This document shows, in pieces, positions 502 to 37,122 of a stretch of 49,384 nucleotides of DNA (positions are counted from its first letter, which is position 1; every line of letters starts with the position of its first letter). The notes beneath the pieces are model-generated. The model saw nothing but the letters and a program-made list of their open reading frames with translations. It ran no database searches and was not told where the DNA came from. Source of the DNA: Leisingera sp. JC1 (GTDB taxonomy: Bacteria; Pseudomonadota; Alphaproteobacteria; Rhodobacterales; Rhodobacteraceae); NCBI RefSeq assembly GCF_001679925.1, contig NZ_LYUZ01000114.1:90422-139805 (forward strand), given 5' to 3'. A program made the position numbers and the translations under genes.

Positions 502-571
502 CTCCCGCCCGCGCCGGGTGCCTTCTGCGAAGACCCCCTTGCGGTTGGGTGTGGCGCCGCTGGCGCGGCGC
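502..571 (+). repeat. Composite two-hairpin intergenic repeat, copy A
   Basis: Box 1 CTCCCGCCC lies at 502-510. A small hairpin CTTC-TGC-GAAG lies at 522-532. Box 2 GGTTGGG lies at 543-549. A 7-bp GC hairpin GCGCCGC-TGGC-GCGGCGC lies at 554-571. The spacing from box 1 to box 2 is 32 nt. The copy fills most of the gap between the partial transporter and the phytase-like gene. It matches copies near 7.7, 19.0, 28.2 and 37.1 kb in boxes and spacing. The stem sequence is identical to copy D and its TGGC loop is shared with copies C and D. Confidence 0.75.
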
Positions 572-581
572 AGGGGCTGTT

Positions 582-1493
582 TCAGCGCGGCAGGGCGTAT
601 TCCACCAGTTCGGTGCGCTGCAGCGGCAGGAAATTGTCGTCGGAGACCATAGTGGCGAACATCCGGCCACCCGCGTCGGCCCAGACTGAAAGGCCTTCGA
701 GATTGTCATGGGTGCCAGGGCCGGTTTGCAGCAGCATGGTTTCATTCACCGGGCCGGCGGCGGTGATATCCCAGCGCCGCAGCCGGCTGCGGAAGCCGAG
801 CAGTGTCAGGTCGCGCTCTAGCAGGTAAAACCGGCCGTCTGGGCCGAAATCCGCATCCACCGGCAGGAAGCCGCCGCGCGGCGGCAGGCTGAAGGGCCGG
901 CTCCAGCGGCTGCCGTTCCAGCGCCAGACCGGAATCTGGCCCTGTCTGTCAAAGGCGCGTTCCGGCAATGTGTAGAGATAGCCGCGGGCATCGATTGCCA
1001 GCGTCTCCAGCGACTTGTTGAGCGGCAGCTTGCGGAACGCCTTGGGCCGCGGCAGCACCTTGGCGCGGCTGTCGGGGCGGCGGTAGCGGGCGACCCGCGC
1101 GGCGCCCTCAAAGGAGATGTAACGGCTGCCGTCCGGCGCGACGGCCAGGCCCTCGCTGTCGCCGGCAAAGCCTGTCAGCACCTTGCCGGAGGAGGCGCGC
1201 AGCCCGTGCGCCGTATGTGCCGTCACGCCGGAAATAAGCCCGTCCTTGCGCTGAAGACTGGTTGTCACCAGTGTGGCCCGGTCGCTGAGAACCGTCATTT
1301 CCCGTCCGCCCGCGCTGATTTTCAGCGCCGAAAAGCCGCCGAACCAGGACTGTTTCAGCTTCCAGGTGTAGCTGCCCAGAAATTGCGCCTTGCTGATTAC
1401 CGGTGCCGGGCGGCTGGCCGCAAAGGCCGCCGCTGCCAGCCCGGCGGCGGCGGCAAAAGCCAGGGTCAGTTTGATTGCAGAACGGCGGCGCAT
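582..1493 (-). CDS. Exported esterase-like activity of phytase family protein
   Basis: This is a 303-residue protein. An N-terminal signal peptide (Arg-rich start, then an Ala-rich hydrophobic core ending around residue 25 at FAA-S) predicts export to the periplasm. The body contains repeated beta-propeller-like segments such as FAGDSEGLAVAPDGSRYISF and THDNLEGLSVWADAGGRMF, typical of the phytase-like/esterase-like family (Pfam Phytase-like). Acidic residues in the SEGLAV and NLEGLSV segments are the likely metal-site region. The start overlaps the 3' end of mepA by 28 bases, so translation is probably coupled to it. The substrate is unknown; the family name does not establish phytase activity. 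Confidence 0.8.
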   Translation of the reverse strand: MRRRSAIKLTLAFAAAAGLAAAAFAASRPAPVISKAQFLGSYTWKLKQSWFGGFSALKISAGGREMTVLSDRATLVTTSLQRKDGLISGVTAHTAHGLRASSGKVLTGFAGDSEGLAVAPDGSRYISFEGAARVARYRRPDSRAKVLPRPKAFRKLPLNKSLETLAIDARGYLYTLPERAFDRQGQIPVWRWNGSRWSRPFSLPPRGGFLPVDADFGPDGRFYLLERDLTLLGFRSRLRRWDITAAGPVNETMLLQTGPGTHDNLEGLSVWADAGGRMFATMVSDDNFLPLQRTELVEYALPR

Positions 1494-2335
1494 TGCTGGG
1501 GCAGATCCGAAAGGGTGTAATCCCGTCTCGGTTTAGGCTTTGGCGCGTTCGGGTCAACCGGTTTCGGCGGCGGCGGGTTCAAAATGTCATTGACCCAGCG
1601 CTGTGCATCAGCGCAGCCGTCGCCCTTGGGCGGGGCCGCCTGGTCGACACAGCCGCGGGCGCCGCGCGGGCAATTCAGCCGCACATGGAAGTGGTAGTGA
1701 TGCCCCCACCAGGGCCGGATCTTACGCAGCCAGCGGCGGTCGCCCTTTTCGTCATTGCACATCTGCACCTTGGCGCCGGGAAAGACGAAGATCCGCGCCA
1801 CCCGCTTGTCCTGCGCTGCGGCTTTCAGGATCTCGTGGTGGGCACGGGTCCAGCTCGCGTTCACATAGGCGCCCTTGGCCCGGCGCATGGAGATCGAAGA
1901 GATGTTCTCCCGCGCGCTGCGGCTGAGGTTCAGACGGTCCGGCGGCCGCATCCAGATGTCGATATCCAGGCCGATCTGATGGCTGCGGTGGCCCGACAGC
2001 ATCGGCCCGCCGCGCGGCTGGCTGATGTCGCCGATATACAGCCCCTTCCAGCCGCGCTGTTTCGCGGCCGCGCGGCTCAGGTCCTTGACGAAATCAATCG
2101 CGGCGGGGTGGCCCCAGTTGCGGTTGCGGCTGAGGCGCATTGCCTGCCAGGTGGGGCCGGTCTCGGGCAGCTGCTCAGCACCGGCGACGCAGCCCTTGGC
2201 ATAGGAGCCGAACGGCGCGGGTTTCTGCTGCGAGGCGCTCGGCTTGGCCCCGAACAGCGCCTTGGCGGGGGTCTGCGCGCTTGCCGGAACACTTAATCCC
2301 GCAACCGCCAGACAGATGGCAAGTAACAGTCTCAA
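1466..2335 (-). CDS. mepA: Penicillin-insensitive murein endopeptidase MepA
   Basis: I place the start at TTG 2335-2333. The protein is then 289 residues and begins with a clean signal peptide (MRLLLAICLAVAGLSVPASA). GGAG lies upstream, and the TTG overlaps the stop of the transporter gene (TTGA). The long open frame further upstream is the shadow of that transporter. Zinc-ligand motifs of the M74/LAS family are present: G-H-R-S-H-Q-I-G-L-D-I-D around residues 115-126 (H119 and D126 in family spacing) and H-Y-H-F-H-V at 213-218. MepA cleaves D-Ala-meso-DAP crosslinks in peptidoglycan in the periplasm. It is coupled to genes on both sides. The C-terminal Pro-rich stretch (NPPPPKPVDP) looks like a linker or tail. 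Confidence 0.93.
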   Translation of the reverse strand: MRLLLAICLAVAGLSVPASAQTPAKALFGAKPSASQQKPAPFGSYAKGCVAGAEQLPETGPTWQAMRLSRNRNWGHPAAIDFVKDLSRAAAKQRGWKGLYIGDISQPRGGPMLSGHRSHQIGLDIDIWMRPPDRLNLSRSARENISSISMRRAKGAYVNASWTRAHHEILKAAAQDKRVARIFVFPGAKVQMCNDEKGDRRWLRKIRPWWGHHYHFHVRLNCPRGARGCVDQAAPPKGDGCADAQRWVNDILNPPPPKPVDPNAPKPKPRRDYTLSDLPQQCAAVLQSN

Positions 2336-3696
2336 CCCTGATCTCCTTCTCCTTGAACCCAGATTAACAGTACCAATCCGATCAGAAACAGGCCGATGAC
2401 CGGGGTGATCCCCAGCCGGGCGCTGCCGGTGACAGTTGTTGCAACGCCGATCAGCATCGGCGCCAGAAAGGCGGTGGCGCGCCCCGACAGCCCGTAAAGT
2501 CCAAAGCTCTCGGTCGCTTTGGCAGGGTCGGTGTGGCGCACCATCAGGCTGCGGCTGGCCGATTGCAGGATGCCGCCAAAGCCGCCAATCAGCACGCCGC
2601 AGCCAAAGAACACCGCATCCGGCAGTTTTGACCCTTCGGGCAGGGTGATGCCAAATATCTGCTCGCGCGACATGCTGACGATGGTCAGGCAGACCAGGCT
2701 CAGCACCAGAATAGAGAGGATGATCACCGGCTTCGGCCCGTACTTCCGGTCCGCCTTGCCGCCGGCCCAGCAGAAGATCGTGGCGGCCAGCGCCGCAACG
2801 ATGCCAAAGACGCCAATGAGGGTGATCTGCCAGCCCAGCACCAGCTTGGCGTAGACCCCGCCAAAGCCGTAAAGCCCGTTGAGCGCATCGCGGTACAGCA
2901 TGGAGGAGCCAAGATAGCTGGCGAGGCTGACCCGGTTGCGCAGATTCTTCATTGATTGCACCACCAGCGCCACCGCCTGTCCCACGGTGCCGCGCCGGCC
3001 GGTGGCGCGGCCTTCGCGCACCCACAGGAAATAAGGGATCATGAAAACGGCGAACCACAGTGCGGTGAAGGGCCCGACCGCGCGGGTGCCCTCGCGCGCC
3101 TCAGCGTCCAGGCCGAACAGCGGGCTGAGGCCGATCAGGGTCTTGCCGCTGGCCTGCTCGACAAACAGCAACAGCATGATGAACAGCGAAATCACTCCGC
3201 CGAGGTAGCCAAAAGCAAAGCCGGAGCCGGAGACATTGCCAACATCCTCCTTGCTGGCCAGCGACGGCAGCTGCGCGTTGACGAAGATCAGCGCAAACTC
3301 TGCCCCGATGAAGCCGAAGCCAAAGCTGATCAGCATCCACCACAGGTTGCTGCCGCCCGGGTCCATGTACCACAGCCCCCAAGCACCGATCAGATACATT
3401 AGCGAGAACATCATGATCCAGGGCCGCCGCCGGCCGGAGATATCGGCCAGTGCCCCCATGAACGGCGCGCCGAAGCCGATGATCAACCCGGTAACGGTCA
3501 GGCAAAGCGACCAGATGGTCTGCGCCTGCGCTTTGGCGGCCTCATCCGCCAGTCCCTGGCCAATGAAATGCTCAGCCGCAACGGCGGCAAAGAACGGGCT
3601 GAAAACAAAGGTGACCAGCAGGGTGTGATAAGGCTGGCTGGCCCAGTCGAAGAACCACCACCCCCAGATGCGCTTGCGCATGGATACCTGCTGCAT
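2332..3696 (-). CDS. MFS transporter, UMF1/Atg22-like family
   Basis: This is a 454-residue integral membrane protein with about 12 hydrophobic segments. The N-terminal WGWWFFDWASQPYHTLLVTF is the signature of the UMF1/Atg22-like branch of the major facilitator superfamily. The loop GAPFMGALADISGRRRPWI matches the MFS motif between TM2 and TM3. The start is ATG 3696 with GAGGG upstream; an internal ATG six codons later is an alternative. The stop overlaps the TTG start of mepA, so transporter, mepA and the phytase-like gene form a coupled unit. Substrates of bacterial UMF1 proteins are mostly unknown. The mepA link makes a wall-derived solute possible, but that is a guess. Confidence 0.88.
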   Translation of the reverse strand: MQQVSMRKRIWGWWFFDWASQPYHTLLVTFVFSPFFAAVAAEHFIGQGLADEAAKAQAQTIWSLCLTVTGLIIGFGAPFMGALADISGRRRPWIMMFSLMYLIGAWGLWYMDPGGSNLWWMLISFGFGFIGAEFALIFVNAQLPSLASKEDVGNVSGSGFAFGYLGGVISLFIMLLLFVEQASGKTLIGLSPLFGLDAEAREGTRAVGPFTALWFAVFMIPYFLWVREGRATGRRGTVGQAVALVVQSMKNLRNRVSLASYLGSSMLYRDALNGLYGFGGVYAKLVLGWQITLIGVFGIVAALAATIFCWAGGKADRKYGPKPVIILSILVLSLVCLTIVSMSREQIFGITLPEGSKLPDAVFFGCGVLIGGFGGILQSASRSLMVRHTDPAKATESFGLYGLSGRATAFLAPMLIGVATTVTGSARLGITPVIGLFLIGLVLLIWVQGEGDQG

Positions 3697-3775
3697 GCCC
3701 GCCCTCTTGTTATCGGGGCGCAGGAGTTACGGGTCTGCACCCTCTTGCCTTCAGGTATGGCAGGCGGGCAGGGGC

Positions 3776-4745: not shown

Positions 4746-4759
4746 TCTGAAAATCTCCG

Positions 4760-6957: not shown

Positions 6958-7722
6958 ATGCTGGTAGTGACCTCTCCGGCCAAGAAGCTGGACTGGGCGG
7001 AACGGGATCAGGAAATGACCTGGCCCGCGCTGCATGACGACGCGGTGGAACTGGCCGAAGTGGCCCGCAAACAATCCGTGGCGGATCTGATGAAGCTGAT
7101 GCACATCAGCGAGGATCTGGCCAAGCTGAACCATGCGCGGTTTCAGGAGTTTGCCGCCGATCCCAAAACAGACGCCACCCGCCCGGCGGCGCTGGCCTTT
7201 GCCGGTGACACTTACCAGGGGCTGGAGGCCGCCTCGCTGGACGCCGATGAAATGGTCTGGGCGCAGGAGCACTTCCGCATCCTGTCGGGCCTCTACGGCG
7301 TGCTGCGCCCGCTGGACGCGATGCAGCCCTACCGGCTGGAGATGGGTTCGCGCCTCAAGAACCCGCGCGGCAAGAACCTCTATGAGTTCTGGGGCAGCAA
7401 GATATCGGAGGCGCTGAATGCGCAGGCAGAGGCCGTGGGCGCCGGGTTGCTGGTAAATTGCGCCAGCCAGGAATATTTCGGCGCAGTGGATCTGGCGGCG
7501 CTGAAGCTGCGGGTGGTCACACCGGTGTTCATGGAAGACAAGAACGGCACCCCCAAAGTGGTGAGCTTCTATGCCAAACGCGCCCGCGGCGCGATGACGC
7601 GTTACATCATCCAAGGCAGGCTGACGGATGCGGAGAGCCTTAAGGACTTCGATGCCGGCGGCTATGCCTACCATCCGCAGATGTCGGAGCCGGACAAACC
7701 CGTCTTCCTGCGCAAAGGCTGA
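6958..7722 (+). CDS. yaaA: Peroxide stress protein YaaA (DUF328 family)
   Basis: This 254-residue protein has the typical family length. The N-terminus MLVVTSPAKKLDW and the central LNHARFQEF, GDTYQGLEA and LRPLDAMQPYRLEMGSRL motifs are diagnostic of YaaA/DUF328. So is the C-terminal VSFYAKRARGAMTRYIIQ block. In E. coli YaaA is cytoplasmic, protects against peroxide by limiting free iron, and binds DNA. Placement after recQ suggests a shared DNA-damage or oxidative-stress role, which is inference. A GGGGG stretch precedes the ATG. A composite repeat begins 16 bases after the stop. Confidence 0.94.
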   Translation: MLVVTSPAKKLDWAERDQEMTWPALHDDAVELAEVARKQSVADLMKLMHISEDLAKLNHARFQEFAADPKTDATRPAALAFAGDTYQGLEAASLDADEMVWAQEHFRILSGLYGVLRPLDAMQPYRLEMGSRLKNPRGKNLYEFWGSKISEALNAQAEAVGAGLLVNCASQEYFGAVDLAALKLRVVTPVFMEDKNGTPKVVSFYAKRARGAMTRYIIQGRLTDAESLKDFDAGGYAYHPQMSEPDKPVFLRKG

Positions 7723-7737: not shown

Positions 7738-7819
7738 CTCCCGCCCGTTCCGGCACATTCACAGAATGCACCGTCCCGGTTGGGCCCGGCAGCGCGCGGA
7801 ACGCGCGCTGCCGGGCCCA
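7738..7819 (+). repeat. Composite two-hairpin intergenic repeat, copy B
   Basis: Box 1 CTCCCGCCC is at 7738-7746. A small hairpin CATTC-ACA-GAATG is at 7756-7768. Box 2 GGTTGGGC is at 7778-7785. The second hairpin is an 18-bp perfect stem (7781-7798 with 7802-7819, loop GAA) that partly includes box 2. Box spacing is 31 nt. The element lies between convergent yaaA and the histidine kinase. The long stem could stop transcription from yaaA, although there is no T-run. No gene is seen in the remaining 7820-8002. Confidence 0.75.
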
Positions 7820-8002: not shown

Positions 8003-10333
8003 CTAGCCTGTGCCTGCTTCGGGCGCATTGCCCGCCGCCGCGGATTGGGCGGGAGCACTCTCCGCCTCAACGGGCTGGATGCCCGCAGGCGCGTGGCTGC
8101 GGATCTGGTCGTGGATCAGCGCCTTGCGCAGCGGCTTGGTCAGGTAGTGGTCCAGCCCGGCGGCCAGTATACCCTCGGAGTCGCCTGCCATCGCATGCGC
8201 TGTCAGCGCCACCACCGGCACACGGCTGCCGGTCCCTGCTTCCAGCCTGCGGATTTCCATCGTGGCTTCCTTGCCGTCCATCATCGGCATCGAGATGTCC
8301 ATGAAGATCAGATCGGGGCGGTAGGTCTTGAAGGCCTCCACCGCCTCCAGCCCGTTGTTGGCAAACTGCAGCTCGATGTTCAGCTCCTTCACGATCTTGC
8401 TGAACACCAGCTGGTTGGTCTTGTTGTCTTCCGCTGCCAGCACGCGCATTTTGCGGATCGCCGGGGCCGCGGGCGCGGCAGGAGCTGCCGGTGCTGCAGG
8501 CACCGCGGCCACTGGCGCGGGGGGCACCGGCGGCGGCGGCACGGGCGCTGCTGCTGCGGCGGCGGGAGCGGCTGCCGCGGTGCGCACATCCGGACTTGTG
8601 GTTTCGCCGCCCAGCCGGGCCAGCTGGCTGAACAGGTCATCGCGCGGGGCCGGGCTTTGCAGCACACCGCTGACCAGCTGCCGCAGATCGGACCCGATGG
8701 CGGTATGCGGGCTGGAATTCAGCAGCAGGACCGGCACCCCGGTCCAGCCGTAGGACCTGAGGTCGCGGGCCAGCTGCAAGCCGTCCAGCCCCGGCAGGTT
8801 GTGGCCGCTCAGCACCAGGCTGATACCGCCCTGCATGGCCGCAAGCGCTTCTGCCGCGGTGCCGGCCGTGGTCACCTTGAGGCCCAGCATCTGCAAATGC
8901 TTCTGCAGGATCTCGCAGTTCAGCGGCACATCGTCCACCAGCAGCACATGGCGCAGGCTTCCGGGAAGTTTCGGCAGTGTCTGCTCCGCCGCGCCGCCAA
9001 CCACGGGCAGCGGCAGCCGGAAGCCGAAACAGGACCCCTTGCCCTCTTCGCTGTCGACCCAGATCTCGCCGCCCATCATCTCGATCAGCCGCTTGGAGAT
9101 CGCCAGCCCCAGCCCGGTGCCTTCGAACTTGCGGTTGCGCTCATCCTCAACCTGATTGAATTCGCCGAACACATGCTCCAGCTTCTCTGCCGGAATGCCG
9201 ATCCCGGTGTCCTCGATTGTGACATGCACCGCGCATTGACCGTCTTCGGGCGAGGTGATTCCGGTCACCCGCAGGGTCACATGGCCCTTCTTGGTGAATT
9301 TCACCGCATTGCCGGCCAGGTTCGTCAGCACCTGCCGGATCCGGCCCGGGTCGCCTACGAACCGCGTCGGCAGGAACAGGTCGTAATCCACCAGCAGCGC
9401 CAGACCCTTGTCGCGGGCGGTTGGCTGCAACAGCATCACCACCTCATGCAGGCTGCGCTCCAGGTCAAACTCCTGCGGATGCAGCTCCAGCTTGTCGGCC
9501 TCGATCTTGGAGTAATCCAGCACGTCGTTGATGATGACCAGCAGCGCCTCGCCCGAGTTCTTGATGGTCTTGGCATAGAGCTGCTGCTCCTCGTTCAGCT
9601 CGGTATCGTTCAGCAGCTCGGCCATGCCGACGACCCCGTTCATCGGGGTGCGGATCTCGTGGCTCATGTTGGCGAGGAAGGCGGATTTGGCGCGGTTTGC
9701 GGCCTCGGCCCGGGCACGGGCATCCTGCAGTTCCTGCTCGTAACGCACGGTCGAGGTGATATCGAGCGCCAGCGTCACCACATCGCCGCCGTGGCCGCGC
9801 TGATCGATCAGCCGCAGGTACCGCTCATCCCAGAGCTGGACCACCACCGGTTCCGGGGAATCGGACTGCCAGCGCTCTGACATCATCGCATGCCAGTCGC
9901 GGGCCTTCATGCTGCCGGTGCTGATCAGCCCCTCTTCGATCAGCAGCTCCAGGATCCGCTCATAGGTGATTCCCGGCGTGACCTCTTCCAGCCCGTCAAA
10001 GATGTTGAGGTAGGCGGTATTGGCACCGATCAGGTGCCCCGCAGCGTCAAAGAAGGCAAAGCCGTCCTGAAACGCCTGGATCGAGTGCCACAGCCGCCGC
10101 TCGGCGGTTTCGATCTTCTCATTGGCGGTGTGCAGGTCGGATTTCACCTTGGCGTTTTCGTCGCGCACGGTGGCGACCTCGGCCTGGGTCTGGCCGATCT
10201 GCTTGGTCAGTGCCAGCGCGTGGCGGCCCAGCTTGCGGTTGGCAGCGGACAGCTCAGCCTGCTTCAGCTCAAGCAGCCGTTCAGCGGCGAGCCGCGCCCG
10301 CCTTTCTTCCGCCAGTTTGTCAGCAAGGCTCAT
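8003..10333 (-). CDS. PAS-containing hybrid sensor histidine kinase with two receiver domains
   Basis: The protein has 776 residues and no transmembrane segment, so it is probably a cytoplasmic sensor. An N-terminal coiled coil (about 5-85) leads to a PAS domain (about 88-195). HisKA contains [15 protein letters not shown] with phospho-acceptor H225. The HATPase region has N-box [16 protein letters not shown] and [10 protein letters not shown] first receiver-like domain (about 463-570) keeps the acidic pair in LLVDDVP. It has Gly510 where the phospho-Asp should be, and Ser in place of the usual Lys (LQSPAP). A long Ala/Pro linker follows. The second receiver (about 630-750) is canonical, with D679 in [10 protein letters not shown] and LTKP. 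No HPt domain or response regulator is adjacent, so the partner is unknown. Confidence 0.93.
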
Positions 10334-18101: not shown

Positions 18102-18950
18102 ATGCTGAGACCCTTTCTTGCCGCCTGCACCATTGCCTTCACAGCTCCAGCGGCCATGGCCGCCTGTGCCACAGACGGTGAAATCACCGCCTTCGTGGAC
18201 AGCTATCTGGCCAAGGCCCCGGCGCAGGCGCTGTCCCCCGGTGGCAGTATGCAGGACGCGCTCTGCTCTCAGGCTAAACTGGCTCTGGCCATGGAACCAA
18301 TTATGGGGCCAGTTGTCGGCTACAAGGCCGGCCTCACCAGCAAACCTGCGCAGGACCGCTTCGGCGCCACAGAGCCGGTGCGGGGCCTGCTGTTCCAGAA
18401 CATGATGCTTGAGGACGGTGCCACCCTTGACGCCCCCTGGGGTGCCATCCCGATGGTGGAGGCGGACCTCGTGCTGGTGGTTGCGGATGAAGCGATCAAC
18501 GGTGCCATAACGCCTACGGAAGCCCTCGCCCACATCTCCGCCGTCCGCCCGTTTATTGAACTGCCCGACCTGACGCTTGCCAAGGATCAGCCCTTCACCC
18601 CGGAAACCATCACCGCAATGGGGGTTGGCACCCGTCTCGGTGTCCTCGGTGCGCCGGTGCCGGTTGAAGACCCGGCAGAGATGGCCCGGATGCTGGAGGA
18701 AATGTCCGTCACAATGCGCGACGCGGCGGGCGGCGTGCTGGTGCAGGCACCGGGCCGGGCAGTTCTGGGCAATCCGGTCAATGCGGTGCTGTGGCTGCGC
18801 TCCAAGGGGGTGGAGTTCAAGCCGGGCGACCTGATCTCGGTGGGGTCCTTCGGCCCGCTGTTCCCGCCGCGCGCAGGCAAGGGCGGGGTCAGTGTGACTT
18901 ACGAAGGTCTGCCGGGCGATCCGGTGGTTGAAGTGTTCTTCAAGCAATAA
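18102..18950 (+). CDS. Exported FAH / 2-keto-4-pentenoate hydratase-fold protein
   Basis: The protein has 282 residues from ATG 18102 with GGAGG seven bases upstream. The family normally acts in the cytoplasm on aromatic meta-cleavage products, but here a convincing signal peptide (MLRPFLAACTIAFTAPAAMA-A) leads the protein. The body resembles MhpD-type hydratases: VGYKAGLTS (K75), a metal-site-like VEAD (E120, D122; E-x-E is usual) and FIELPD (E153). C-terminal GDLISVGSFGPLFP matches the family's GDLI..G.. block. It is the third gene after A2M and pbpC with short spacing, so its job may relate to the envelope. No other ring-cleavage genes are nearby. The fold is likely; the reaction is unknown. 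Confidence 0.75.
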   Translation: MLRPFLAACTIAFTAPAAMAACATDGEITAFVDSYLAKAPAQALSPGGSMQDALCSQAKLALAMEPIMGPVVGYKAGLTSKPAQDRFGATEPVRGLLFQNMMLEDGATLDAPWGAIPMVEADLVLVVADEAINGAITPTEALAHISAVRPFIELPDLTLAKDQPFTPETITAMGVGTRLGVLGAPVPVEDPAEMARMLEEMSVTMRDAAGGVLVQAPGRAVLGNPVNAVLWLRSKGVEFKPGDLISVGSFGPLFPPRAGKGGVSVTYEGLPGDPVVEVFFKQ

Positions 18951-19003: not shown

Positions 19004-19075
19004 GCGCCGCGCTTTTGGCGCGGCGCTTGGCCCAACCAGAACGGATTCCGCAAGGAAGCCAGGAGTGGGCGGGAG
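19004..19075 (-). repeat. Composite two-hairpin intergenic repeat, copy E
   Basis: Read on the minus strand, box 1 CTCCCGCCC is at 19075-19067. Hairpin 1 TTCC-TTGC-GGAA is at 19057-19046. Box 2 GGTTGGGC is at 19037-19030. Hairpin 2 is a 9-bp stem (19026-19018 with 19012-19004) around a 5-base loop. Box spacing is 29 nt. It starts 22 bases after the stop of the minus-strand membrane-protein gene, mirroring copies B and D, which also lie just after same-strand stop codons. Confidence 0.75.
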
Positions 19076-19096: not shown

Positions 19097-21139
19097 CTAC
19101 CGCCGCCCCTCGCGCAGCCAGCCTGCGAGGATGAAGAAGGACACCAGCAGAAGCGCCAGCCAGCCGGGCAGCAGCGGGCCTTGGCTGACTGAAAGCGTCT
19201 CATAAGCCTCCCGCGGGGTCAGGCCGATCCAGCCGCGCCCCGATGCGGGCCGCCCGGCGCGCACGCTGCGCAAGGCGGGCATCCCGTCCTCCAGCCGTAA
19301 GACGCCGCCGCGCAGGGGCTCCAGCACCGGTGCCAGCACAGACCCGGTGGCAATGGTTTCCTCGAACTCCTTGGGCGCCGCAGGCCCAAGTCCGACCACG
19401 GTGGTCTCATCGCCCTCTTCCAGCCGGTACAGCCCCGGTTCCGGCCCTTCATAGCGGGTTTCCCATTGCCCCGGTGCGCTCGGACGCAGGTCCAGATCCA
19501 CCGTCGAACCATCCGGCGCAGTCACCGTCACCGGCCCGACCCGGCCTGCCAGCGTGCGGCGCAGGATGCGCATCCGCTGGCCAGTCACCTCGGCCCAGAG
19601 CGCCTCTTCCTCCAGCTCCGGCTCCTTCATCATCCAATGCGCAAGACGGCGCAGCAGCTCCAGCTGCGGCCCGCCGCCCTCGTATCCCCGGCTCCACAGC
19701 CAGGCATGGTCCGACGCCAGCAAGGCAACCCGGCCCTCACCCACCCGGTTCAGCACCAGCAAAGGCCGTTCGCCTGCGCCGCTCATCAGCACATGGCCCT
19801 CGGGTGTGCGAAGTTCGATCTGACGCAGCCAGCGGCCCCAGTCCGCGGCCCCCTCCAGCCCCGAAGTGACGGGGTGCTGCTTGCCCAAATCTGTGACTTC
19901 CGGACGGTAGGCCTCCTCCAGCACCCGCGCCGAGGGTTCGGCGGGCAGGATCAGCGACAGGGGTGAGCGGTAGATGCTGTCGGCGCTGGCGAAATCCGGT
20001 CCCGCTGCCACCAGCACCGCGCCGCCGCCCATCGCGTAATTGGCCACATTGTCCAGATAGACCGCCGGCAGGATGCCGCGCCGCTTGTAGCGATCAAAGA
20101 TGATCAGGTCGAAGTCCTCGATCTTTTCCAGGAACAGCTCGCGGGTGGGAAAGGCGATCAGCGACAGCTCCTCCACCGGCACCCCGTCCTGCTTTTCCGG
20201 CGGCCGCAAGATGGTGAAATGCACAAGGTCCACCGCGCTGTCGGACTTCAAGAGGTTGCGCCAGGTGCGCCCGCCCGCGTGCGGCTCGCCCGACACCAGC
20301 AAGACCCGCAGCCGGTCGCGCACCCCGTTGATCTGCACCAGCGCCTGGTTGTTGCGCGCGGTCAGCTCACCCGGCTCTTCCGGCACGGAGAACTGAATCA
20401 CGTTGCGGCCGCCATGCTTCAACACCAGCGGCAGTTCGAAATCAACGCCCACGGGCAGGGCAAACCGCTGCGGCGGCCCGCCCGCGACCGAGACGTCTAT
20501 GTCGGCAAAGCCGCCCTGCACCGGCACCGCGCCCTGATCCTCGATCCTCAGCGTCAGTTTCACCGGTTCGCCGATGATGGCAAAGCCGGGGGCGTTTTTC
20601 ACGATAAGGCGCCGGTCCCAGTCGTCTTCGCGTCCGGTCAGCAGCAAATGCATCGGTGCGGGCAGGTTCACCGGCTGATCCGCGTCATGCGCCTGGCCGT
20701 CAGACAGGGCTATGATCCCCGCCACCCGCGCCCGCGGCTCATCCGCCAGCGCCTGGGCGATGGCCGCCATCAGCCGCGTGCCTTCGTCGCCCTCGCCATC
20801 CGGCACGGTGACCCAGCGCACATCGGTGCCGGGCCGGTCCGCCAGCGCCGCCTTCAGCTGGCTGCGCGCCCGCGTGATCTGTTCCGGGCGGTCCCGCAGC
20901 TGCTGGCTGGCGGTCTGGTCTTCCGCCACGATCACGATGTCGCTCAGCGGCGCGCGGTCCTCGCTCTGATGCACCGGCCCGGACAAAGCAGCCAGCAGCA
21001 CCAGCGCCGCCAGCGCCCGCAAGGCCCAGCCGGACAGTCCCTTCCACAGCCCCAGCAGCAAAGCGGCCAGAGTGACAGCCCCCGCGGCCCAGATCACCGG
21101 CCAGGGCACCAGCGGGTCGAACAGGATCGTCTGTGTCAT
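19097..21139 (-). CDS. Membrane protein with GATase-like domain, last gene of MoxR operon
   Basis: The protein has 680 residues. Two hydrophobic segments lie at the N-terminus (about 15-58) and one near the C-terminus (LPGWLALLLVSFFILAGWL). The middle is predicted to face the periplasm. It has a vWA-like start (DIVIVAEDQTASQ), an Ig-like stretch (about 190-265) and a class I glutamine-amidotransferase-like segment (FDLIIFDRYKRRGILP, GGGAVLVAAGPDFAS). The catalytic Cys-His of true amidotransferases is not evident. It follows the BatA/DUF4159 gene by nine bases. Topology resembles the upstream partner, suggesting a membrane complex served by the MoxR ATPase. The function is unknown. Confidence 0.8.
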   Translation of the reverse strand: MTQTILFDPLVPWPVIWAAGAVTLAALLLGLWKGLSGWALRALAALVLLAALSGPVHQSEDRAPLSDIVIVAEDQTASQQLRDRPEQITRARSQLKAALADRPGTDVRWVTVPDGEGDEGTRLMAAIAQALADEPRARVAGIIALSDGQAHDADQPVNLPAPMHLLLTGREDDWDRRLIVKNAPGFAIIGEPVKLTLRIEDQGAVPVQGGFADIDVSVAGGPPQRFALPVGVDFELPLVLKHGGRNVIQFSVPEEPGELTARNNQALVQINGVRDRLRVLLVSGEPHAGGRTWRNLLKSDSAVDLVHFTILRPPEKQDGVPVEELSLIAFPTRELFLEKIEDFDLIIFDRYKRRGILPAVYLDNVANYAMGGGAVLVAAGPDFASADSIYRSPLSLILPAEPSARVLEEAYRPEVTDLGKQHPVTSGLEGAADWGRWLRQIELRTPEGHVLMSGAGERPLLVLNRVGEGRVALLASDHAWLWSRGYEGGGPQLELLRRLAHWMMKEPELEEEALWAEVTGQRMRILRRTLAGRVGPVTVTAPDGSTVDLDLRPSAPGQWETRYEGPEPGLYRLEEGDETTVVGLGPAAPKEFEETIATGSVLAPVLEPLRGGVLRLEDGMPALRSVRAGRPASGRGWIGLTPREAYETLSVSQGPLLPGWLALLLVSFFILAGWLREGRR

Positions 21140-28222: not shown

Positions 28223-28292
28223 CTCCCGCCCGCCGCAAGCAGCATCAAAGATGCAGCAGCAGCCGTTGGGCGTGGCGCCGCTGGCGCGGCGT
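28223..28292 (+). repeat. Composite two-hairpin intergenic repeat, copy D
   Basis: Box 1 CTCCCGCCC is at 28223-28231. Hairpin GCATC-AAA-GATGC is at 28242-28254. Box 2 GTTGGGC is at 28265-28271. Hairpin GCGCCGC-TGGC-GCGGCGT is at 28275-28292, with a closing G-T wobble. Box spacing is 32-33 nt. It begins 27 bases after the second DUF2798 stop. Confidence 0.75.
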
Positions 28293-28310
28293 AAGGGGTT
28301 TGCTGAGAAG

Positions 28311-28340
28311 CCCCTTAAGGGCAGGTCTGCCCTTAAGGGG
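28311..28340. repeat. 14-bp perfect inverted repeat next to copy D
   Basis: CCCCTTAAGGGCAG and CTGCCCTTAAGGGG are perfect reverse complements around GT. Each arm contains the palindrome CCCTTAAGGG. It lies between convergent genes and may act as a bidirectional terminator, though it has no T-run. Confidence 0.6.
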
Positions 28341-28396
28341 CGTTGCCGATTGTTTTCAGGGCGGGCCGCGTCAAGGGCAAGCCGCGCTGACCGCGC

Positions 28397-28791: not shown

Positions 28792-31596
28792 TCAATGCGC
28801 CTCGGCCCAGTTCGAACCGCGGCCTGCGTCCACCACCAGTTTCACGTCCAGATGCACCGCCGGATCGGCGGCGTTCTCCATCACCTCGCGGGCCGTCGCG
28901 ATGGTCTCTTCGACCGCCGCCTCCGGCACCTCGAACAGCAGTTCGTCATGCACCTGCAACAGCATCCGCGCAGGCAGATGGGCAATCGCCTCCGGCATCC
29001 GGATCATCGCCCGGCGGATCACATCTGCCGCGGTGCCCTGGATCGGCGCGTTGATCGCCGCGCGCTTGGCAAAGCCCGCCTTCGGCCCCTTGGCGTTGAT
29101 CTCCGCGGTATGGATCTTGCGCCCGAACAGGGTCTGGACGTAGCCATGCTCCTTGGCGAATTCGACGGTGCTGTCCATGTACTTGCGGATGCCCGGGAAG
29201 CGCTCGAAGTAGCGGTCGATGAACCCCTGCGCGTCCTTGCGCGGAATGCGCAGGTTGCGCGCCAGGCCAAAGCCGGAAATGCCATAGATCACACCGAAGT
29301 TGATCGCCTTGGCCTGGCGGCGGATCTCCGGCGTCATCTCCTCCAGCGGCACCTCGAACATCTCGGACGCGGTCATCGCGTGAATGTCGACACCTTCGGC
29401 AAAGGCCTGTTTCAGCGCATCAATCCCGGCCATGTGGGCGAGGATCCGCAGTTCGATCTGGCTGTAGTCGAGCGACAGCAGAACATTGCCTTCTTCCGCC
29501 ACAAACGCCTCGCGGATGCGGCGGCCTTCCTCGGTGCGCACGGGGATGTTCTGCAGGTTCGGATCGGTGGAGGCCATGCGCCCGGTGCTGGCCCCGGTCT
29601 GGGCATAAGATGTATGCACCCGGCCGGTGTCCGGGTTGATATGGTCCTGCAAAGCGTCCGTATAGGTCGACTTCAGCTTGGACAGCTGCCGCCAGTCCAG
29701 CACCCGCGCGGGCAGGTCGTGCTCGGTCGCCAGATCCTCCAGGATGTCCGCACCGGTGGCATAGGCGCCTGTTTTGCCCTTCTTGCCGCCTGGCAGCGCC
29801 ATCTTGTCGAACAGGATCTCGCCCAGCTGCTTGGGCGAGCCGACGTTGAAGGTCTCCCCCGCCAGCTCATGGATCTCCGCCTCCAAGCCCGCCATTTTCT
29901 GGGCGAAGGCGTTGGACATGCGCGAGAGCGTATCGCGGTCCACCTTGATGCCGTTGCGCTCCATATCCGCCAGCACCGGCACCAGCGGCCGCTCCAGCGT
30001 TTCATAAACCGTCGTGACCCGTTCCTGATGCAGTTGCGGCTTGAACAGCTGCCACAGGCGCAGGGTGATGTCGGCGTCCTCGGCCGCATAGGGTACCGCG
30101 TCATCAATTGGCACCCGGTCAAAGGTGATCGCGGACTTGCCGGTGCCCAACAGCGGCTTGATCGGGATCGGCGTGTGGTCCAGATAGCGTTCGGACAGCG
30201 CATCCATGCCATGCCCGTGCATCCCTGCATGCAGCGCGTAGGACATCAGCATGGTGTCGTCGATGGGCGCCACGTCCACGCCGTAGCGGTGCAGGATCTT
30301 GGCGTCGTATTTCATGTTCTGGCCGATTTTCATGATCGCTGGATCTTCCAGAACCGGTTTCAGCATGGCGATCGCTTCCTCCAGCGGCATCTGTCCCTCG
30401 GACAGGCCCTCGCCGCCGAACAGATCATCGCCCCCGGCCTTATGCGTGAGCGGAATATAGCAGGCCTCGCCCGCCTCCACGCACAGCGAGATGCCGACCA
30501 GATCGACGACCATTTCATCGAGGCCGGTGGTCTCGGTATCCACCGCCACCCAGCCGCGCTCGCGGATGCGGTCGACCCAGACCTGCAGCGCCGCCGCATC
30601 GCGGACGCATTCGTATTTCTCCTTGTCAAAGGGCACCGCCTCCGGCGCTGCCGCTGTGGAAGCCGCTGCGGCGGGGGCTTCCGGAATGGCCGGCGCCTCC
30701 ATGCCCAGCTGATCGGCCATGCGTTTCGACAGTGTGCGGAATTCCATCTCGCTCAGGAAAGTCAGCAGGGTCTCCGCATCCGGCTCCTTCACCTCCAGAT
30801 CGTCCAGGGTGAAGTCCAGCTCCATATTGCAGTCGAGCTGCACCAGCTTCTTCGACAGTTCGATCTGATCCCGCTTCTCAATCAGCGTTTGGCGGCGCTT
30901 GGGTTGTTTGATCTCCTCGGCCCGGTCCAGCAGTTCCTCGAGAGAGCCGAATTCGTTGATCAGCAAAGCGGCGGTCTTGATCCCGATCCCCGGCGCCCCT
31001 GGCACGTTGTCAACCGAGTCGCCCGCCAGCGCCTGCACATCCACCACCCGGTCCGGGCCGACGCCGAATTTCTCCACCACGCCGTCGCTGTCGATGCGCT
31101 TGTTCTTCATCGCGTCCAGCATCTCGACGCCGCCGCCAACCAGCTGCATCAGGTCCTTGTCCGAGGAGATGATGGTCACCCGCCCGCCGGCATCGCGCGC
31201 CTGATGCGCCAGCGTTGCGATGATGTCATCGGCCTCGAAGCCCTCGATCTCCTTGCAGGCGATGTTGAAGGCGCGGGTGGCGTCGCGGGTCAGCGGGAAC
31301 TGCGGCACCAGGTCCTCCGGCGCGGGCGGGCGGTTGGCCTTGTACAAATCGTACATCTCGTTGCGGAAGGATTTGCCGGAATAGTCGAAAATCACCGCCA
31401 CATGGGTCGGCGCATCCGGGCCCTTGTTGTCCTCGACCTGCTTAAACAGCATGTTGCAGAAACCCGCCACGGCGCCGATCGGCAGCCCGTCAGATTTTCG
31501 CGTCAGCGGCGGCAGCGCGTGATAGGCGCGGAAGATGAAGGCCGAGCCGTCGATCAGGTGGAGGTGACAACCTTTGCCGAACTGGGTATTGCTCAT
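28792..31596 (-). CDS. polA: DNA polymerase I
   Basis: The protein has 934 residues with GGAG eight bases before ATG 31596. All three domains are present. The 5'-3' exonuclease (about 10-295) has VIFDYSGKSFR, SSDKDLMQL and GDSVDNVPGAPGIG. The 3'-5' proofreading domain has VAVDTETTGLDEM, so the acidic DTE residues are intact. The polymerase domain has motif A LLSLDYSQIELRILAHM, the O-helix RRQAKAINFGVIYGISGFGL and motif C QVHDELLFEV. It functions in Okazaki-fragment maturation and excision-repair synthesis. It is divergent from a lipoprotein gene across only 31 bases, so that gene's promoter must lie inside or at the edge of polA. Confidence 0.98.
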   Translation of the reverse strand: MSNTQFGKGCHLHLIDGSAFIFRAYHALPPLTRKSDGLPIGAVAGFCNMLFKQVEDNKGPDAPTHVAVIFDYSGKSFRNEMYDLYKANRPPAPEDLVPQFPLTRDATRAFNIACKEIEGFEADDIIATLAHQARDAGGRVTIISSDKDLMQLVGGGVEMLDAMKNKRIDSDGVVEKFGVGPDRVVDVQALAGDSVDNVPGAPGIGIKTAALLINEFGSLEELLDRAEEIKQPKRRQTLIEKRDQIELSKKLVQLDCNMELDFTLDDLEVKEPDAETLLTFLSEMEFRTLSKRMADQLGMEAPAIPEAPAAAASTAAAPEAVPFDKEKYECVRDAAALQVWVDRIRERGWVAVDTETTGLDEMVVDLVGISLCVEAGEACYIPLTHKAGGDDLFGGEGLSEGQMPLEEAIAMLKPVLEDPAIMKIGQNMKYDAKILHRYGVDVAPIDDTMLMSYALHAGMHGHGMDALSERYLDHTPIPIKPLLGTGKSAITFDRVPIDDAVPYAAEDADITLRLWQLFKPQLHQERVTTVYETLERPLVPVLADMERNGIKVDRDTLSRMSNAFAQKMAGLEAEIHELAGETFNVGSPKQLGEILFDKMALPGGKKGKTGAYATGADILEDLATEHDLPARVLDWRQLSKLKSTYTDALQDHINPDTGRVHTSYAQTGASTGRMASTDPNLQNIPVRTEEGRRIREAFVAEEGNVLLSLDYSQIELRILAHMAGIDALKQAFAEGVDIHAMTASEMFEVPLEEMTPEIRRQAKAINFGVIYGISGFGLARNLRIPRKDAQGFIDRYFERFPGIRKYMDSTVEFAKEHGYVQTLFGRKIHTAEINAKGPKAGFAKRAAINAPIQGTAADVIRRAMIRMPEAIAHLPARMLLQVHDELLFEVPEAAVEETIATAREVMENAADPAVHLDVKLVVDAGRGSNWAEAH

Positions 31597-33469: not shown

Positions 33470-34402
33470 ATGAGTGCTGACGCAATCCAGATCAAAGCTT
33501 TGCGCAAAATCTACAAGGGCCATAAGGGCCAGCCGGAGAAACACGCGCTCAAGGGCGTCGACCTGACGGTGCCGCGCGGCTCTGTCTTCGGCCTGCTGGG
33601 GCCGAACGGCGCGGGCAAATCGACGATGATCAACATCCTCGCAGGCCTCGTGCGCAAGACCTCCGGCTCGGTGTCGATCTGGGGGTTCGACCAGGACGCA
33701 AACCCGCGCCAGAGCCGCGCCGCCATCGGGGTGATGCCGCAGGAGCTGAATCTCGACCCGTTCTTCACCCCGCGCGGCGCACTGGAAGTGCAGGCGGGGC
33801 TTTACGGCGTGCCCAAGCACGAGCGCCACAGCGACGAAATCCTGCGGATGATCGGGCTTGAGGACAAGGCAGAGGCCTATGCACGCACCCTCTCCGGCGG
33901 CATGCGGCGGCGGCTTCTGCTGGGCAAGGCGCTGGTGCATCACCCGTCTGTGCTGGTGCTGGATGAGCCGACGGCGGGCGTCGACATCGAGCTGCGCCAG
34001 ATGCTGTGGGAAAACATCCGCAAACTGAACGCGCAAGGCATGACCATCATCCTCACCACCCACTATCTGGAGGAGGCTGAGGAGATGTGCGACGAGATCG
34101 CCATCATCAACCAGGGCGAGGTGGTGGCGCGCGACAGCAAGTCCAGCCTGCTGGGCCGGCTTGATGCCAAGACCATGGTGGTGCAGCCCGCGGTGCCGGC
34201 GGCAGTGCTGCCGCAAGGCGACGGCATCGAGGCCGAGCTGCGCGAAGACGGCGCCGTTTGCCTGCGCTACCGCAGCCGCGCAACCAGCGCCGAAGACGTG
34301 CTGGCCGCGGTCCATGCGGCGGGTATTTCGATCCGCGACGTCAAGACAGAGGAAGCCGATCTGGAGGACGTCTTCCTGTCGCTGACCAAGGCCGCGGGAT
34401 AA
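33470..34402 (+). CDS. ABC transporter ATP-binding protein (YadG/CcmA-like)
   Basis: The protein has 310 residues. It has Walker [10 protein letters not shown] at about 44-52, signature LSGGMRRRL, Walker [12 protein letters not shown] and H-loop [10 protein letters not shown]. The C-terminal ~80 residues form the extension seen in drug and polysaccharide-exporter ATPases of the YadG class. A permease gene normally follows such ATPases, but none is present here: a 262-base gap and a LysR gene on the other strand follow instead. The cognate permease must be elsewhere or lost. Substrate unknown. Confidence 0.92.
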
Positions 34403-34664
34403 TAGTCAAAACCATCTGTCTCATCCAGCCGGCAAGCGCGATTACGCCAGCCCGGGCAGCGGCCATTCCGGATGCGAGCGGCGTATGAGCCGGGCACTTC
34501 TGCCGCTTTCCGCAAATGTGCAGAACCCCGCTTTCAGATAGTTTGCAGCAAAACCGGCAGGTTCTGGGCTGCCTGCAAGTGAGGGAGTTTTTGAGCATTC
34601 CGTGCCGCTGGGCAGGTCTGTTACGGACCAAAATGCAGGTCTAGGCTCTGCGCGGCACAGGTGC
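34403..34664. other. Gap after the orphan ABC ATPase, no gene seen
   Basis: These 262 bases lie between the ABC ATPase stop and the LysR stop. I see no convincing open reading frame, hairpin with T-run, or repeat. They may hold the scar of the rearrangement that placed the LysR/TauD pair beside the ATPase. Confidence 0.4.
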
Positions 34665-35561
34665 TCAAACCTGGGTCCGGCACATATCCAGAAAAGCTGA
34701 GACCAGATCCGTCTGCCGCGACGCTCTTGCCAGCGCAATGGAAACCTCGAAACGGCCGATCTCCTGCGCGAGCGGGCGCGTGACCACAGCATCGCCTTCA
34801 ATCGTCTGGTTCCGGCCAGGCGGGAAGCCAACAAGCGTATAACCCAACCCCTTTCCCACATAAGCTTGAACCATTTCGCGGGATTGCGAGGTCAGCGGCA
34901 CCTCCGGGTCAAGACCGGCAGCCCGAAGCAAGTCAAGATAGCTGGGGCCGGGACCAGCCCGCGACACGGAAATGTAGGGAAGGCCGGACAGCTCCTCAAG
35001 CTGCACGCTGTCTGCCTTTACCAAAGGGTGCGACGCAGGCAGCAAAACCAAGGGCGGCAACGCCTTCAGGGTTTCGACATCGAAGCGCGTGTCATCTAAG
35101 CCCTGATTGAAAACAACAAGCGCATCGGTCTCCCCCGCATCTAGTGCTGCAACCAGGCTTGGAAAATCATCTTCCACGACTTCGATACGGACGCGGGGGT
35201 AGCTGTCGCGGAACGTCAGAACCGCAGGCAGCACAATCCGCTGGGCAATGGCATAATGTGTCCCGATCCGGATCGTGCCGGCTTCCCCCTTGGCCAGGTC
35301 GGCGGCATGACGGTCCAGGGCCTTCGCCCGCGTCAGCAGAGCTTCCGAATCTGTAAGGAACTCCGCCCCCGCACGGGTCAGCCGCATACCCCGCGCGGGA
35401 AAACGGTCAAACAAGGTCAGGCCAGTGACCGCTTCGAGTTTGTCCAGCGCCGATGAGACCGCCGCAGCGGAGACGTTCAGGTTTCGTGCCGCAGGCGCGA
35501 TACCACCGCAACGGGCAGTTTCCGACAGAAAGGCAAGTTGCCGCAGTGAAAATCGAACCAT
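34665..35561 (-). CDS. LysR family transcriptional regulator
   Basis: The protein has 298 residues from ATG 35561; an ATG four codons upstream is possible. The N-terminal winged helix-turn-helix reads FSLRQLAFLSETARCGGIAP then AARNLNVSAAAVSSALDKLE. The LysR_substrate effector domain follows from about residue 90. It is divergent from a TauD-type dioxygenase gene, the classic layout for a LysR protein controlling its neighbour. The inducer would likely be the dioxygenase substrate or product. A slightly lower GC3 than its neighbours is visible, which suits acquisition, but this is a weak sign. Confidence 0.92.
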   Translation of the reverse strand: MVRFSLRQLAFLSETARCGGIAPAARNLNVSAAAVSSALDKLEAVTGLTLFDRFPARGMRLTRAGAEFLTDSEALLTRAKALDRHAADLAKGEAGTIRIGTHYAIAQRIVLPAVLTFRDSYPRVRIEVVEDDFPSLVAALDAGETDALVVFNQGLDDTRFDVETLKALPPLVLLPASHPLVKADSVQLEELSGLPYISVSRAGPGPSYLDLLRAAGLDPEVPLTSQSREMVQAYVGKGLGYTLVGFPPGRNQTIEGDAVVTRPLAQEIGRFEVSIALARASRQTDLVSAFLDMCRTQV

Positions 35562-35652
35562 CAGAAAAATCATCCTTTGCGCCAGATTTATTCAGTTTTT
35601 TCGATCTTGGGCAATCTCCTATCCTTCCCGTCAGAGAACAGGGAGACAACCG

Positions 35653-36477
35653 ATGGACATCAGACCTTTGACAGGCGGCCTGGGGGCGGAAATTTTCGGA
35701 GCCGATATAAGAGACGCTGCGCAGTTCGCGGAAATCCACGCAGCCTTCGCTCAATATTCCGTCATTGTGCTCAGAGGGCAAAACATTGCCCCGGAAGACC
35801 ACCTGGATTTTGCACGACGCTTCGGTCCGATCAACGTGAACCGCTTTTTCAAACCCGTCGACGGGCATCCAGAAATCGCAACCGTCCTTAAGGAAAAGGA
35901 CCAGAAAGAAGCGGTCGGCGAAGGCTGGCACACCGATCATTCCTACGACCAGATCCCGGCGATGGGATCGGTACTGCATGCTATCGAGATGCCGCCATAC
36001 GGCGGTGACACGCTGTTCGTGTCGATGGGCGCGGCCTATGAGGCGCTGTCAGCCCCCATGCGCCGGTTTCTGGATGGGCTGACGGCTGTGCATTCGTCCC
36101 GTCACGTCTTTGGTGCGGCCGCGTCGGACAGCGAAGCGGCCAAAAGCGGGCGGTTGGGCAATGCCGAAGCGGCGACGCAGGATGCGCGCCATCCTGCCGT
36201 CATCACGCATCCGCTCAGCGGGCGCCGCGGATTGTTCGTAAACCCTGTTTTCACCACGCATATCGAGGGTTTGACGGCCGATGAATCTGCGGCCCTCCTC
36301 AACATGCTGTATGAGCACTGCAAACAGCCCGAATTTCAGGCCCGTGTCCGCTGGCAGGCAGGCGATATCACCATGTGGGACAATCGCGCCACCTGGCACA
36401 AGGCGATCAACGACTATCAAGGCTTCCGGCGTCTCATGCACTGGGTCACTGTGGATGGTGTAGCTTTGTCGGGTTAG
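35653..36477 (+). CDS. TauD/TfdA family Fe(II)/2-oxoglutarate dioxygenase
   Basis: The protein has 274 residues from ATG 35653 with GGGAG upstream. The Fe(II) facial triad is visible: H93-x-D95 in GWHTDHSYDQ and the distal H249 in TWHKAIND. Arg259/260 (GFRRLMHW) is the likely 2-oxoglutarate salt bridge. The family includes taurine, alkyl sulfate and 2,4-D dioxygenases, so the substrate is not predictable from this. No sulfonate ABC transporter genes are adjacent. Regulation by the divergent LysR gene is likely. The short intergenic region (35562-35652) holds an AT-rich stretch. Confidence 0.92.
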   Translation: MDIRPLTGGLGAEIFGADIRDAAQFAEIHAAFAQYSVIVLRGQNIAPEDHLDFARRFGPINVNRFFKPVDGHPEIATVLKEKDQKEAVGEGWHTDHSYDQIPAMGSVLHAIEMPPYGGDTLFVSMGAAYEALSAPMRRFLDGLTAVHSSRHVFGAAASDSEAAKSGRLGNAEAATQDARHPAVITHPLSGRRGLFVNPVFTTHIEGLTADESAALLNMLYEHCKQPEFQARVRWQAGDITMWDNRATWHKAINDYQGFRRLMHWVTVDGVALSG

Positions 36478-36493
36478 AAGCCCCCCAGCGCTA

Positions 36494-36958
36494 TCACCCC
36501 CGGTCAATCCGCGCCTGATAGCAGTTGTTGCGCGCCGAGCGGATGTGGATGTAGTCCACCCGCTCGTCCCCGAAAATCGCTTCGGCCTGTGCCATCATTT
36601 CCGCCTGCGGAATGACAATGCCGGTGCCGTAAACGATCCGGTGATCGGCGCTGTAGCCCTTGATCAGATAGTCCGGCGCACGCTCCAGAACCTCCGGCAC
36701 GTCCTCCCCCTCATGCCGCGCGCAGCGGTCCGCACACAGGAAGATGGGCCCGGTCTCGGCATAGGGCTGCGCTTCGGGGAAGGGGCGGTGGGCCAGAATC
36801 AGCATCTCCTTTCCTTCAGGGATGTATTGCAGGCAGTGGCGGCAGGGGTTGGGGCCGCCTTCTGCCACCGCGCGCTCCGGCACTTGGCCGTGGGCGTCGG
36901 GGCCGCCCTCCTGCAGGGCGCGGACGATGTCTGTGGGCAGGGCGGTGATCTTGGTCAT
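36494..36958 (-). CDS. DUF1203 domain-containing protein
   Basis: The protein has 154 residues with AAGGAG seven bases before ATG 36958. PNPCRHCLQYIPEGKEMLILAHRPF and FLCADRCARHEG fit DUF1203, including the CRHC and CADRC cysteine pairs. The end contains VDYIHIRSARNNCYQARI. The function is unknown; the cysteines could bind a metal. It is divergent from dnaE2, with a composite repeat and a LexA-like box between them. Confidence 0.9.
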   Translation of the reverse strand: MTKITALPTDIVRALQEGGPDAHGQVPERAVAEGGPNPCRHCLQYIPEGKEMLILAHRPFPEAQPYAETGPIFLCADRCARHEGEDVPEVLERAPDYLIKGYSADHRIVYGTGIVIPQAEMMAQAEAIFGDERVDYIHIRSARNNCYQARIDRG

Positions 36959-37050
36959 GGGGTTTCTCCTTTTCTGTCAGCACCATGGCGCATCTGCCCC
37001 GCCGCAATCGACCCGGATCTTGCGCATCCCGCATTGGAACAGGGGGTGCT

Positions 37051-37122
37051 CTCCCGCCCGCCGTGCAGGCATTGAAAATGCCCTGCGGCGGTTGGGCGTG
37101 GCGCCGCGCTGGCGCGCGGCGC
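37051..37122 (+). repeat. Composite two-hairpin intergenic repeat, copy C
   Basis: Box 1 CTCCCGCCC is at 37051-37059. Hairpin GGCATT-GAA-AATGCC is at 37068-37082. Box 2 GGTTGGGC is at 37090-37097. A 9-bp hairpin GCGCCGCGC-TGGC-GCGCGGCGC is at 37101-37122. Box spacing is 30 nt. This copy lies between divergent genes, 58 bases before the dnaE2 start, so it is not simply a 3'-end element. Confidence 0.78.

What the first reader, a model, noticed from the sequence alone, without database searches (positions are those of the whole stretch)
502..37122. Five-copy composite intergenic element with two covarying hairpins and fixed box spacing
Copies at 502-571, 7738-7819, 19004-19075 (minus), 28223-28292 and 37051-37122 share box CTCCCGCCC, then a short hairpin, then box GTTGGG(C/T), then a GC hairpin. 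Spacing between the boxes is 29-32 nt in all copies (one base more in copy D if only GTTGGGC is counted). The first hairpin's stem differs in every copy (CTTC/GAAG, CATTC/GAATG, GGCATT/AATGCC, GCATC/GATGC, TTCC/GGAA) but always pairs. This is the signature of selection on structure rather than sequence. The TGGC loop of hairpin 2 is conserved in three copies. Three copies start 16-28 nt after a same-strand stop codon; one lies before dnaE2. I know no named element with this layout. It could be a mobile non-autonomous repeat, a processing or terminator module, or a nucleoid-protein site.
Basis: partly seen in the sequence, partly recalled or inferred. Interest (0 to 1): 0.72.

Follow-up and report, generated by a model that had tools for sequence, protein, structure and literature searches.

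The report
Structured gene-end element in Rhodobacteraceae
Dozens of copies of a folded nucleic-acid element sit just behind gene stop codons in marine Rhodobacteraceae, mostly between genes that face each other; their letters change while their pairing is kept, so they probably mark or terminate the ends of transcripts, and no named family was found to fit them.

Summary
The five copies are real (0.00 expected in shuffles). The box pattern occurs 50 times in the 5.19 Mb genome, 1 for the reversed pattern; a covariance model finds 83 copies. Anatomy corrected: boxes and 'hairpin 1' form one long stem, then a GC hairpin. Pairing covaries.

(2) 53 of 83 own copies lie between convergent genes, 4 between divergent ones. 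(3) At junctions comparable with a same-genus species, 43 rows keep the element, 1 lacks it. (4) Own copies are at most 86% identical, no Y1 transposase was found: recent spread is unlikely. (5) No general U tract; no Rfam match.

Best reading: a 3'-end (terminator-type) RNA element of Rhodobacteraceae, with 43-81 exact pattern matches in each of four genomes of its genus. Termination is inferred, not shown.

The parts
502..549 (+). Copy A, stem 1: CTCCCGCCC (502-510) to GTTGGG (544-549); the more stable fold is on the - strand
554..571 (+). Copy A, GC hairpin 2, 10 nt beyond the stop (582) of the Phytase-like gene 582-1493 (-)
7738..7784 (+). Copy B, stem 1: box 1 7738-7746, box 2 7779-7784; 15 nt behind the yaaA-like gene 6958-7722 (+)
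7785..7815 (+). Copy B, GC hairpin 2; the convergent hybrid histidine kinase gene ends at 8003
19031..19075 (-). Copy C, stem 1: box 1 19067-19075, box 2 19031-19036; 21 nt behind gene 19097-21139 (-)
19004..19026 (-). Copy C, GC hairpin 2; the convergent FAA-hydrolase-like gene ends at 18950
28223..28270 (+). Copy D, stem 1: box 1 28223-28231, box 2 28265-28270; 27 nt behind a + strand stop
28276..28291 (+). Copy D, GC hairpin 2, followed by a second palindromic repeat; the convergent polA-like gene ends at 28792
37051..37096 (+). Copy E, stem 1: box 1 37051-37059, box 2 37091-37096; between DUF1203 (-) and the DnaE2-like gene (+)
37101..37122 (+). Copy E, GC hairpin 2, 57 nt before the ATG at 37180 taken as the start of the DnaE2-like gene

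Best explanation
A family of structured RNA elements that define transcript 3' ends, most often between convergent genes, and probably act as terminators without a U tract. Each arm has a conserved foot (CTCCC...TTGGG, with a GC/TT internal loop and a C×C mismatch), a freely changing but paired upper stem, and a GC hairpin. Shown here: the pairing, the place behind stop codons, the rarity at divergent junctions, the conservation at orthologous junctions, and that the reverse-complement strand is the one that folds best (hairpin 2, then CCCAA, stem, GCGGGAG). Inferred: transcripts arriving on that folding strand form the stem and stop about 20 nt before the stop codon of the opposing gene; in two-arm copies (tail-to-tail inverted arms) each arm guards the gene next to it. 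Not known: whether RNA polymerase stops by itself, with Rho, or whether the 3' end is made by processing.
For: Alignment-free covariation gives one diagonal, z up to 10.1, in 79 of 83 copies. In the model-fitted alignment 89.4% of cells pair against 70.3% shuffled; 303 cells are changed on both sides against 84.8. Strand: 109 C·A against 18 G·U in 286 distinct copies; with the 50 copies chosen by the boxes alone 18 against 5 (p 0.011), and the reverse complement folds better in 49 of 50. Hairpin 2 in the same copies shows no such bias, 21 against 32. Context of 83 own copies: 53 convergent, 14 '--', 9 '++', 4 divergent, 3 with one side missing, none inside a called gene. In 20 G181 tiles selected for hits the element is in 34 of 48 convergent, 17 of 87 codirectional and 0 of 52 divergent gaps of at least 100 nt. 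Distance from + stop to box 1 in own copies: median 21 nt, quartiles 15 and 35. Own-to-G181 junction rows: element kept in 43, absent in 1. Where it is missing, other hairpins stand at three of the sites that I looked at; the one in L169 is flanked by A and T runs like a classical two-way terminator (by eye).
Against: No transcript data were available. There is no general U tract: T4 within 10 nt of hairpin 2 in 8 of 286 (control stretch 3), and within 20 nt on the folding-strand side in 26 of 284 (control 14); a mild excess only. In codirectional sites both orientations are about equally common ('++' 41, '--' 47), so one-way termination alone does not explain placement. In '++' single copies the wobble bias is 4 against 2, inconclusive. 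In 20 further G181 tiles the element was in 0 of 20 convergent and 3 of 80 codirectional gaps, so most convergent junctions use something else. Divergent sites exist: 4 of 83 own (copy E among them) and 7 of 139 named copies; 1 of 77 G181 copies overlaps a called gene.
Confidence: 0.55

Rival explanations
1. A REP/BIME-like selfish palindromic repeat: copies spread long ago by a lost transposase and survive where insertion harms least, behind stop codons.
For: Copy number, placement between convergent genes and inverted dimers resemble published REP families (PMC3733652, section 6 and passages). Own copies share more in the variable stem than shuffled ones, best-hit median 0.73 against 0.57, up to 0.90. 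One G181 copy (L227:15505) has no counterpart at the own junction in L085.
Against: No near-identical whole copies: highest identity 0.86, 2 of 83 with a best hit of 0.85 or more. 43 junction rows keep the element in G181 and 1 lacks it, while the intergenic flanks look diverged by eye. Y1 transposase family PF01797 not found; it rings in 5 of 14 control genomes. Published REP families have short stems of 8-9 bp (CGTC type); here a longer stem varies and covaries.
Confidence: 0.2
2. A 3'-UTR stability or protein-binding element: the stem protects mRNA ends from exonucleases or binds a dedicated protein, without terminating transcription.
For: Conserved mismatches near the foot (C×C 214 of 286, T×C 140 of 279, C×T 128 of 278; on the folding strand G×G and tandem G·A) look like a recognition site. 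No general U tract.
Against: Does not by itself explain the preference for convergent junctions or the inverted two-arm copies.
Confidence: 0.15
3. A DNA-level site (single-stranded DNA hairpin, cruciform or nucleoid-protein target).
For: G·T pairs are also tolerated in DNA (recalled); DNA parameters favour the same strand in 250 of 286; both orientations occur in codirectional sites.
Against: Position behind stop codons and 0 of 52 divergent gaps in the selected G181 tiles point to transcripts.
Confidence: 0.1

Closest known systems
REP/BIME families (GTAG and CGTC superfamilies, PMC3733652)
   Same: Many intergenic palindromic copies, near 3' ends, often between convergent genes, inverted dimers
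   Different: Published CGTC REPs have 8-9 bp stems starting with A/T pairs and mostly CCA tails; here a longer stem with a conserved foot, a variable covarying top, and an extra GC hairpin; no Y1 (RAYT-type) transposase found
Bidirectional intrinsic terminators between convergent genes
   Same: Placement at convergent junctions; at three compared sites other hairpins stand in its place
   Different: No general U tract; sequence-conserved boxes and mismatches
Rhodobacterales motifs HRC-8-4 and uORFC-8-2 (PMC8632094, passages)
   Same: Structured RNA candidates confined to the same order
   Different: Those are tied to single loci (cco operons, cysS) and have U runs

Membership tests
REP mobilised by RAYT | Y1/RAYT transposase in the genome | tested here: not met
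   PF01797: 0 matches in the own genome (99.61% complete); 5 of 14 control genomes ring
CGTC REP | 8-9 bp stem with A/T pairs in first and second position, loop 4-5, CCA tail | tested here: not met
   Definition read in PMC3733652 section 6; the stem here runs from position 8 to about 23, with C·G or G·C at position 8 in 273 of 286
Intrinsic (Rho-independent) terminator | GC hairpin followed by a U tract | tested here: not met
   T4 within 10 nt of hairpin 2 in 8 of 286; folding-strand side 26 of 284 within 20 nt, control 14
Transcript 3'-end element | Located behind stop codons, rare in divergent gaps | tested here: met
   Divergent: 4 of 83 own, 0 of 77 G181, 7 of 139 named copies; gene calls by my own script
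Transcript 3'-end element | RNA 3' ends map to it | not testable with these tools
   No transcriptome data held
Any Rfam 15 family | Match at or above gathering score | tested here: not met
   0 in the window; in 4 loci searched at E up to 1, two matches far below gathering score, one of them (E 0.93) over an element
Recently mobile non-autonomous element | Near-identical copies or many empty orthologous sites | tested here: not met
   Max identity 0.86; own-to-G181 rows 43 present, 1 absent; over all species pairs 241 rows present, 17 absent. Most G181 tiles compared were chosen because they hold copies

The most novel reading that the evidence does not exclude
A dedicated antisense guard: each arm sits about 20 nt behind the stop codon of the gene it protects but folds best in the transcript coming from the opposite side, stopping it (with a lineage-specific factor that reads the G×G/tandem G·A foot) before it enters the gene.
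Probability: 0.22. Interest if true: 0.8.

Novelty: new variant of a known kind. Interest (0 to 1): 0.6.

Why it matters
How GC-rich alphaproteobacteria end transcripts, and keep convergent genes from transcribing into each other, is to my knowledge little mapped. A repeated, covarying, strand-specific element with 43-81 exact pattern matches per genome in its genus (four genomes; 83 and 120 model hits in the two genomes searched with R1) gives a directly testable candidate. It also warns that intergenic repeats like this can be in-place structures under selection rather than mobile debris.

Tried and rejected
Two separate hairpins with spacer boxes: rejected, one diagonal of covariation. Recent transposition: see rivals. 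Rut site from simple C excess: in the upper stem C·A mismatches (102) far outnumber C·T (36) and C·C (22), although the stem region has more C (5456) and T (2682) than A (1487); tolerance of G·U on the other strand explains them better. Integron attC (recalled, not from a call): GTTGGGC resembles the GTTRRRY core, but here it pairs with CTCCCGC rather than RYYYAAC, so rejected. A second palindrome behind copy D (GCTGAGAAGC...GGGCAGGTCTGCCC): 3 exact copies in the genome, not followed further. Paper searches for a published name gave none in what was listed; two searches looked for the letters of box 1 and listed 20 of 3,040 and 8 of 76 papers, none of the listed ones holding them. The library covers open-licence PMC papers only.

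Limits: the gene caller is my own codon-usage script, not a published tool. The R1 lists of G000 and G181 may be incomplete, since only 150 first-look candidates were scored in each. Of 119 named loci, L199-L217 (19) were not searched with R1; of 140 R1 hits in the other 100, one (L099, cut at the end) was left out of later counts. One search hit 98 of those 100 loci; L175 (Roseospirillum) and L192 had none. Of 299 collected copies, 286 distinct ones with CTCCCG and TTGGG entered the strand tests. In one search a few off-diagonal cells reach z of about 3. Part of the output was cut, so its count is not used; one search is cited instead; its rows are not independent. Of the 17 absent rows, by eye 3 are variants that the search missed (L177 twice, L158), 3 show other hairpins (L226, L157, L169; L157 keeps a remnant of the element), and 11 were not classified. 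One search compares only the 20 of 43 ortholog pairs with stems of equal length: 207 pairs unchanged, 6 changed on both sides with Watson-Crick pairing, 9 to C·A, 6 to G·U, 20 broken; so direct compensatory change between these two species is modest, and the strong covariation is that between copies.

Full report
Observation. The two-box pattern has 5 hits in the window against a shuffle mean of 0.00, and 50 hits in the whole genome against 1 for the reversed pattern. A covariance model from these 50 (R1) finds 83 copies at E 0.05 or better.

Anatomy. Counting letters from box 1 on one side and from TTGGG on the other, without any alignment, complementary changes lie on one diagonal (positions 8-14 with 1-7, then 17-23 with 9-15; z 2.6 to 10.1; a few cells off it reach about 3; 79 of 83 copies). 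So there is one long stem: CCC of box 1 with GGG of box 2 at the foot (invariant, so not itself tested by covariation), a GC/TT internal loop, a C·G or G·C pair, a conserved C×C mismatch (214 of 286), often a T×C/C×T pair of mismatches, and a variable top. A GC hairpin follows (median 11 aligned pairs). On the model-fitted alignment (86 distinct rows) 17 of 22 pairs show changes on both sides (shuffled mean 14.6, reached by 11 of 500); the covariation score is 0.431 against 0.121 shuffled and at most 0.057 when slid. That alignment is fitted to the structure, so the alignment-free test carries more weight.

Which strand folds. Among mismatches flanked by Watson-Crick pairs in the stem, C·A outnumbers G·U 109 to 18 over 286 distinct copies (own 29:6, G181 34:5, named 46:7). 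C·A here is G·U on the other strand. With the 50 copies chosen by the boxes alone the ratio is 18:5 (p 0.011), and the reverse complement folds better in 49 of 50; for random window 47-mers this was 204 of 400. Hairpin 2 shows no clear bias (32 G·U, 21 C·A; p 0.17).

Two arms. Some copies are tail-to-tail inverted pairs (for example C150:183+/333-): 114 of 299 copies have an opposite-strand R1 hit close by. Arms come in a common type (C8·G, 239 of 286) and a rarer one (G8·C, 34 of 286; 25 of these 34 in two-arm copies).

Place. In G181, a same-genus genome with 120 hits, 20 tiles chosen for hits have the element in 34 of 48 convergent, 17 of 87 codirectional and 0 of 52 divergent gaps of at least 100 nt; 20 tiles spread over the chromosome away from the first set have 0 of 20, 3 of 80 and 0 of 37. 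The true share of convergent junctions thus lies well below 34 of 48. Among copies from named contigs 69 of 139 are convergent, 21 '++', 20 '--', 7 divergent, 22 with one side missing. Box 1 starts a median of 21 nt behind the stop in own copies. In the window, copies B, C and D are at convergent junctions, A is 3' of a Phytase-like gene, E is between DUF1203 and the DnaE2-like gene.

Conservation. For own copies with both flanks found in G181 tiles, the junction carries the element in 43 rows and lacks it in 1; 43 of 83 own copies have a same-strand partner. Most of these tiles were chosen because they hold copies, which raises this figure. Over all species pairs 241 junction rows share the element and 17 do not. 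Own copies are at most 86% identical to each other over the whole element; the variable stem alone reaches 0.90. At the one own site without a G181 counterpart, G181 has other hairpins; in L157 and L169 (Tritonibacter multivorans) the junction orthologous to a G181 copy also carries other hairpins, in L169 flanked by A and T runs (by eye).

Range. The pattern occurs in 77 of 292 genomes drawn from the order; by my count of that table 35 have five or more hits, while the reversed control never exceeds 3.

Function. No general U tract is present on either side; T runs are in mild excess over control stretches (T3: 32 against 18 of 286 behind hairpin 2, 83 against 56 of 284 on the folding-strand side). 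The placement, the folding strand and the replacements point to a 3'-end element acting on transcripts; termination is my inference. Both orientations occur about equally in codirectional gaps (41 and 47), which a strictly one-way terminator would not predict.

Known families. No Rfam match; no Y1 transposase; published CGTC REPs differ in stem and tail. Papers: PMC3733652 section 6 and passages; PMC4809877, PMC12306157, PMC7821165, PMC1590033, PMC2864571, PMC8632094 by passages only; others by search listing. No name for this element was found in the searches listed under Tried and rejected.

Noticed in passing
window 28302-28343 and behind several other copies: A second palindromic repeat (GCTGAGAAGC...GGGCAGGTCTGCCC) follows copy D and some others directly; 3 exact copies in the own genome, more variants by eye.
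   Followed up: partly
L005, L031, L036, L001 downstream of the element: Another recurring stretch (CACCTTT...AAAATACTC-like, in either direction) lies behind some copies.
   Followed up: no
L251:7837-7989, L253:4238-4376, L244:17366-17685: Convergent junctions without the element carry other inverted repeats, some with A and T runs beside them (by eye).
   Followed up: no
G000:C1:278209 and 285597; G181:C1:769290 and 776669: Two neighbouring copies resemble each other within each genome; possibly an old local duplication.
   Followed up: no
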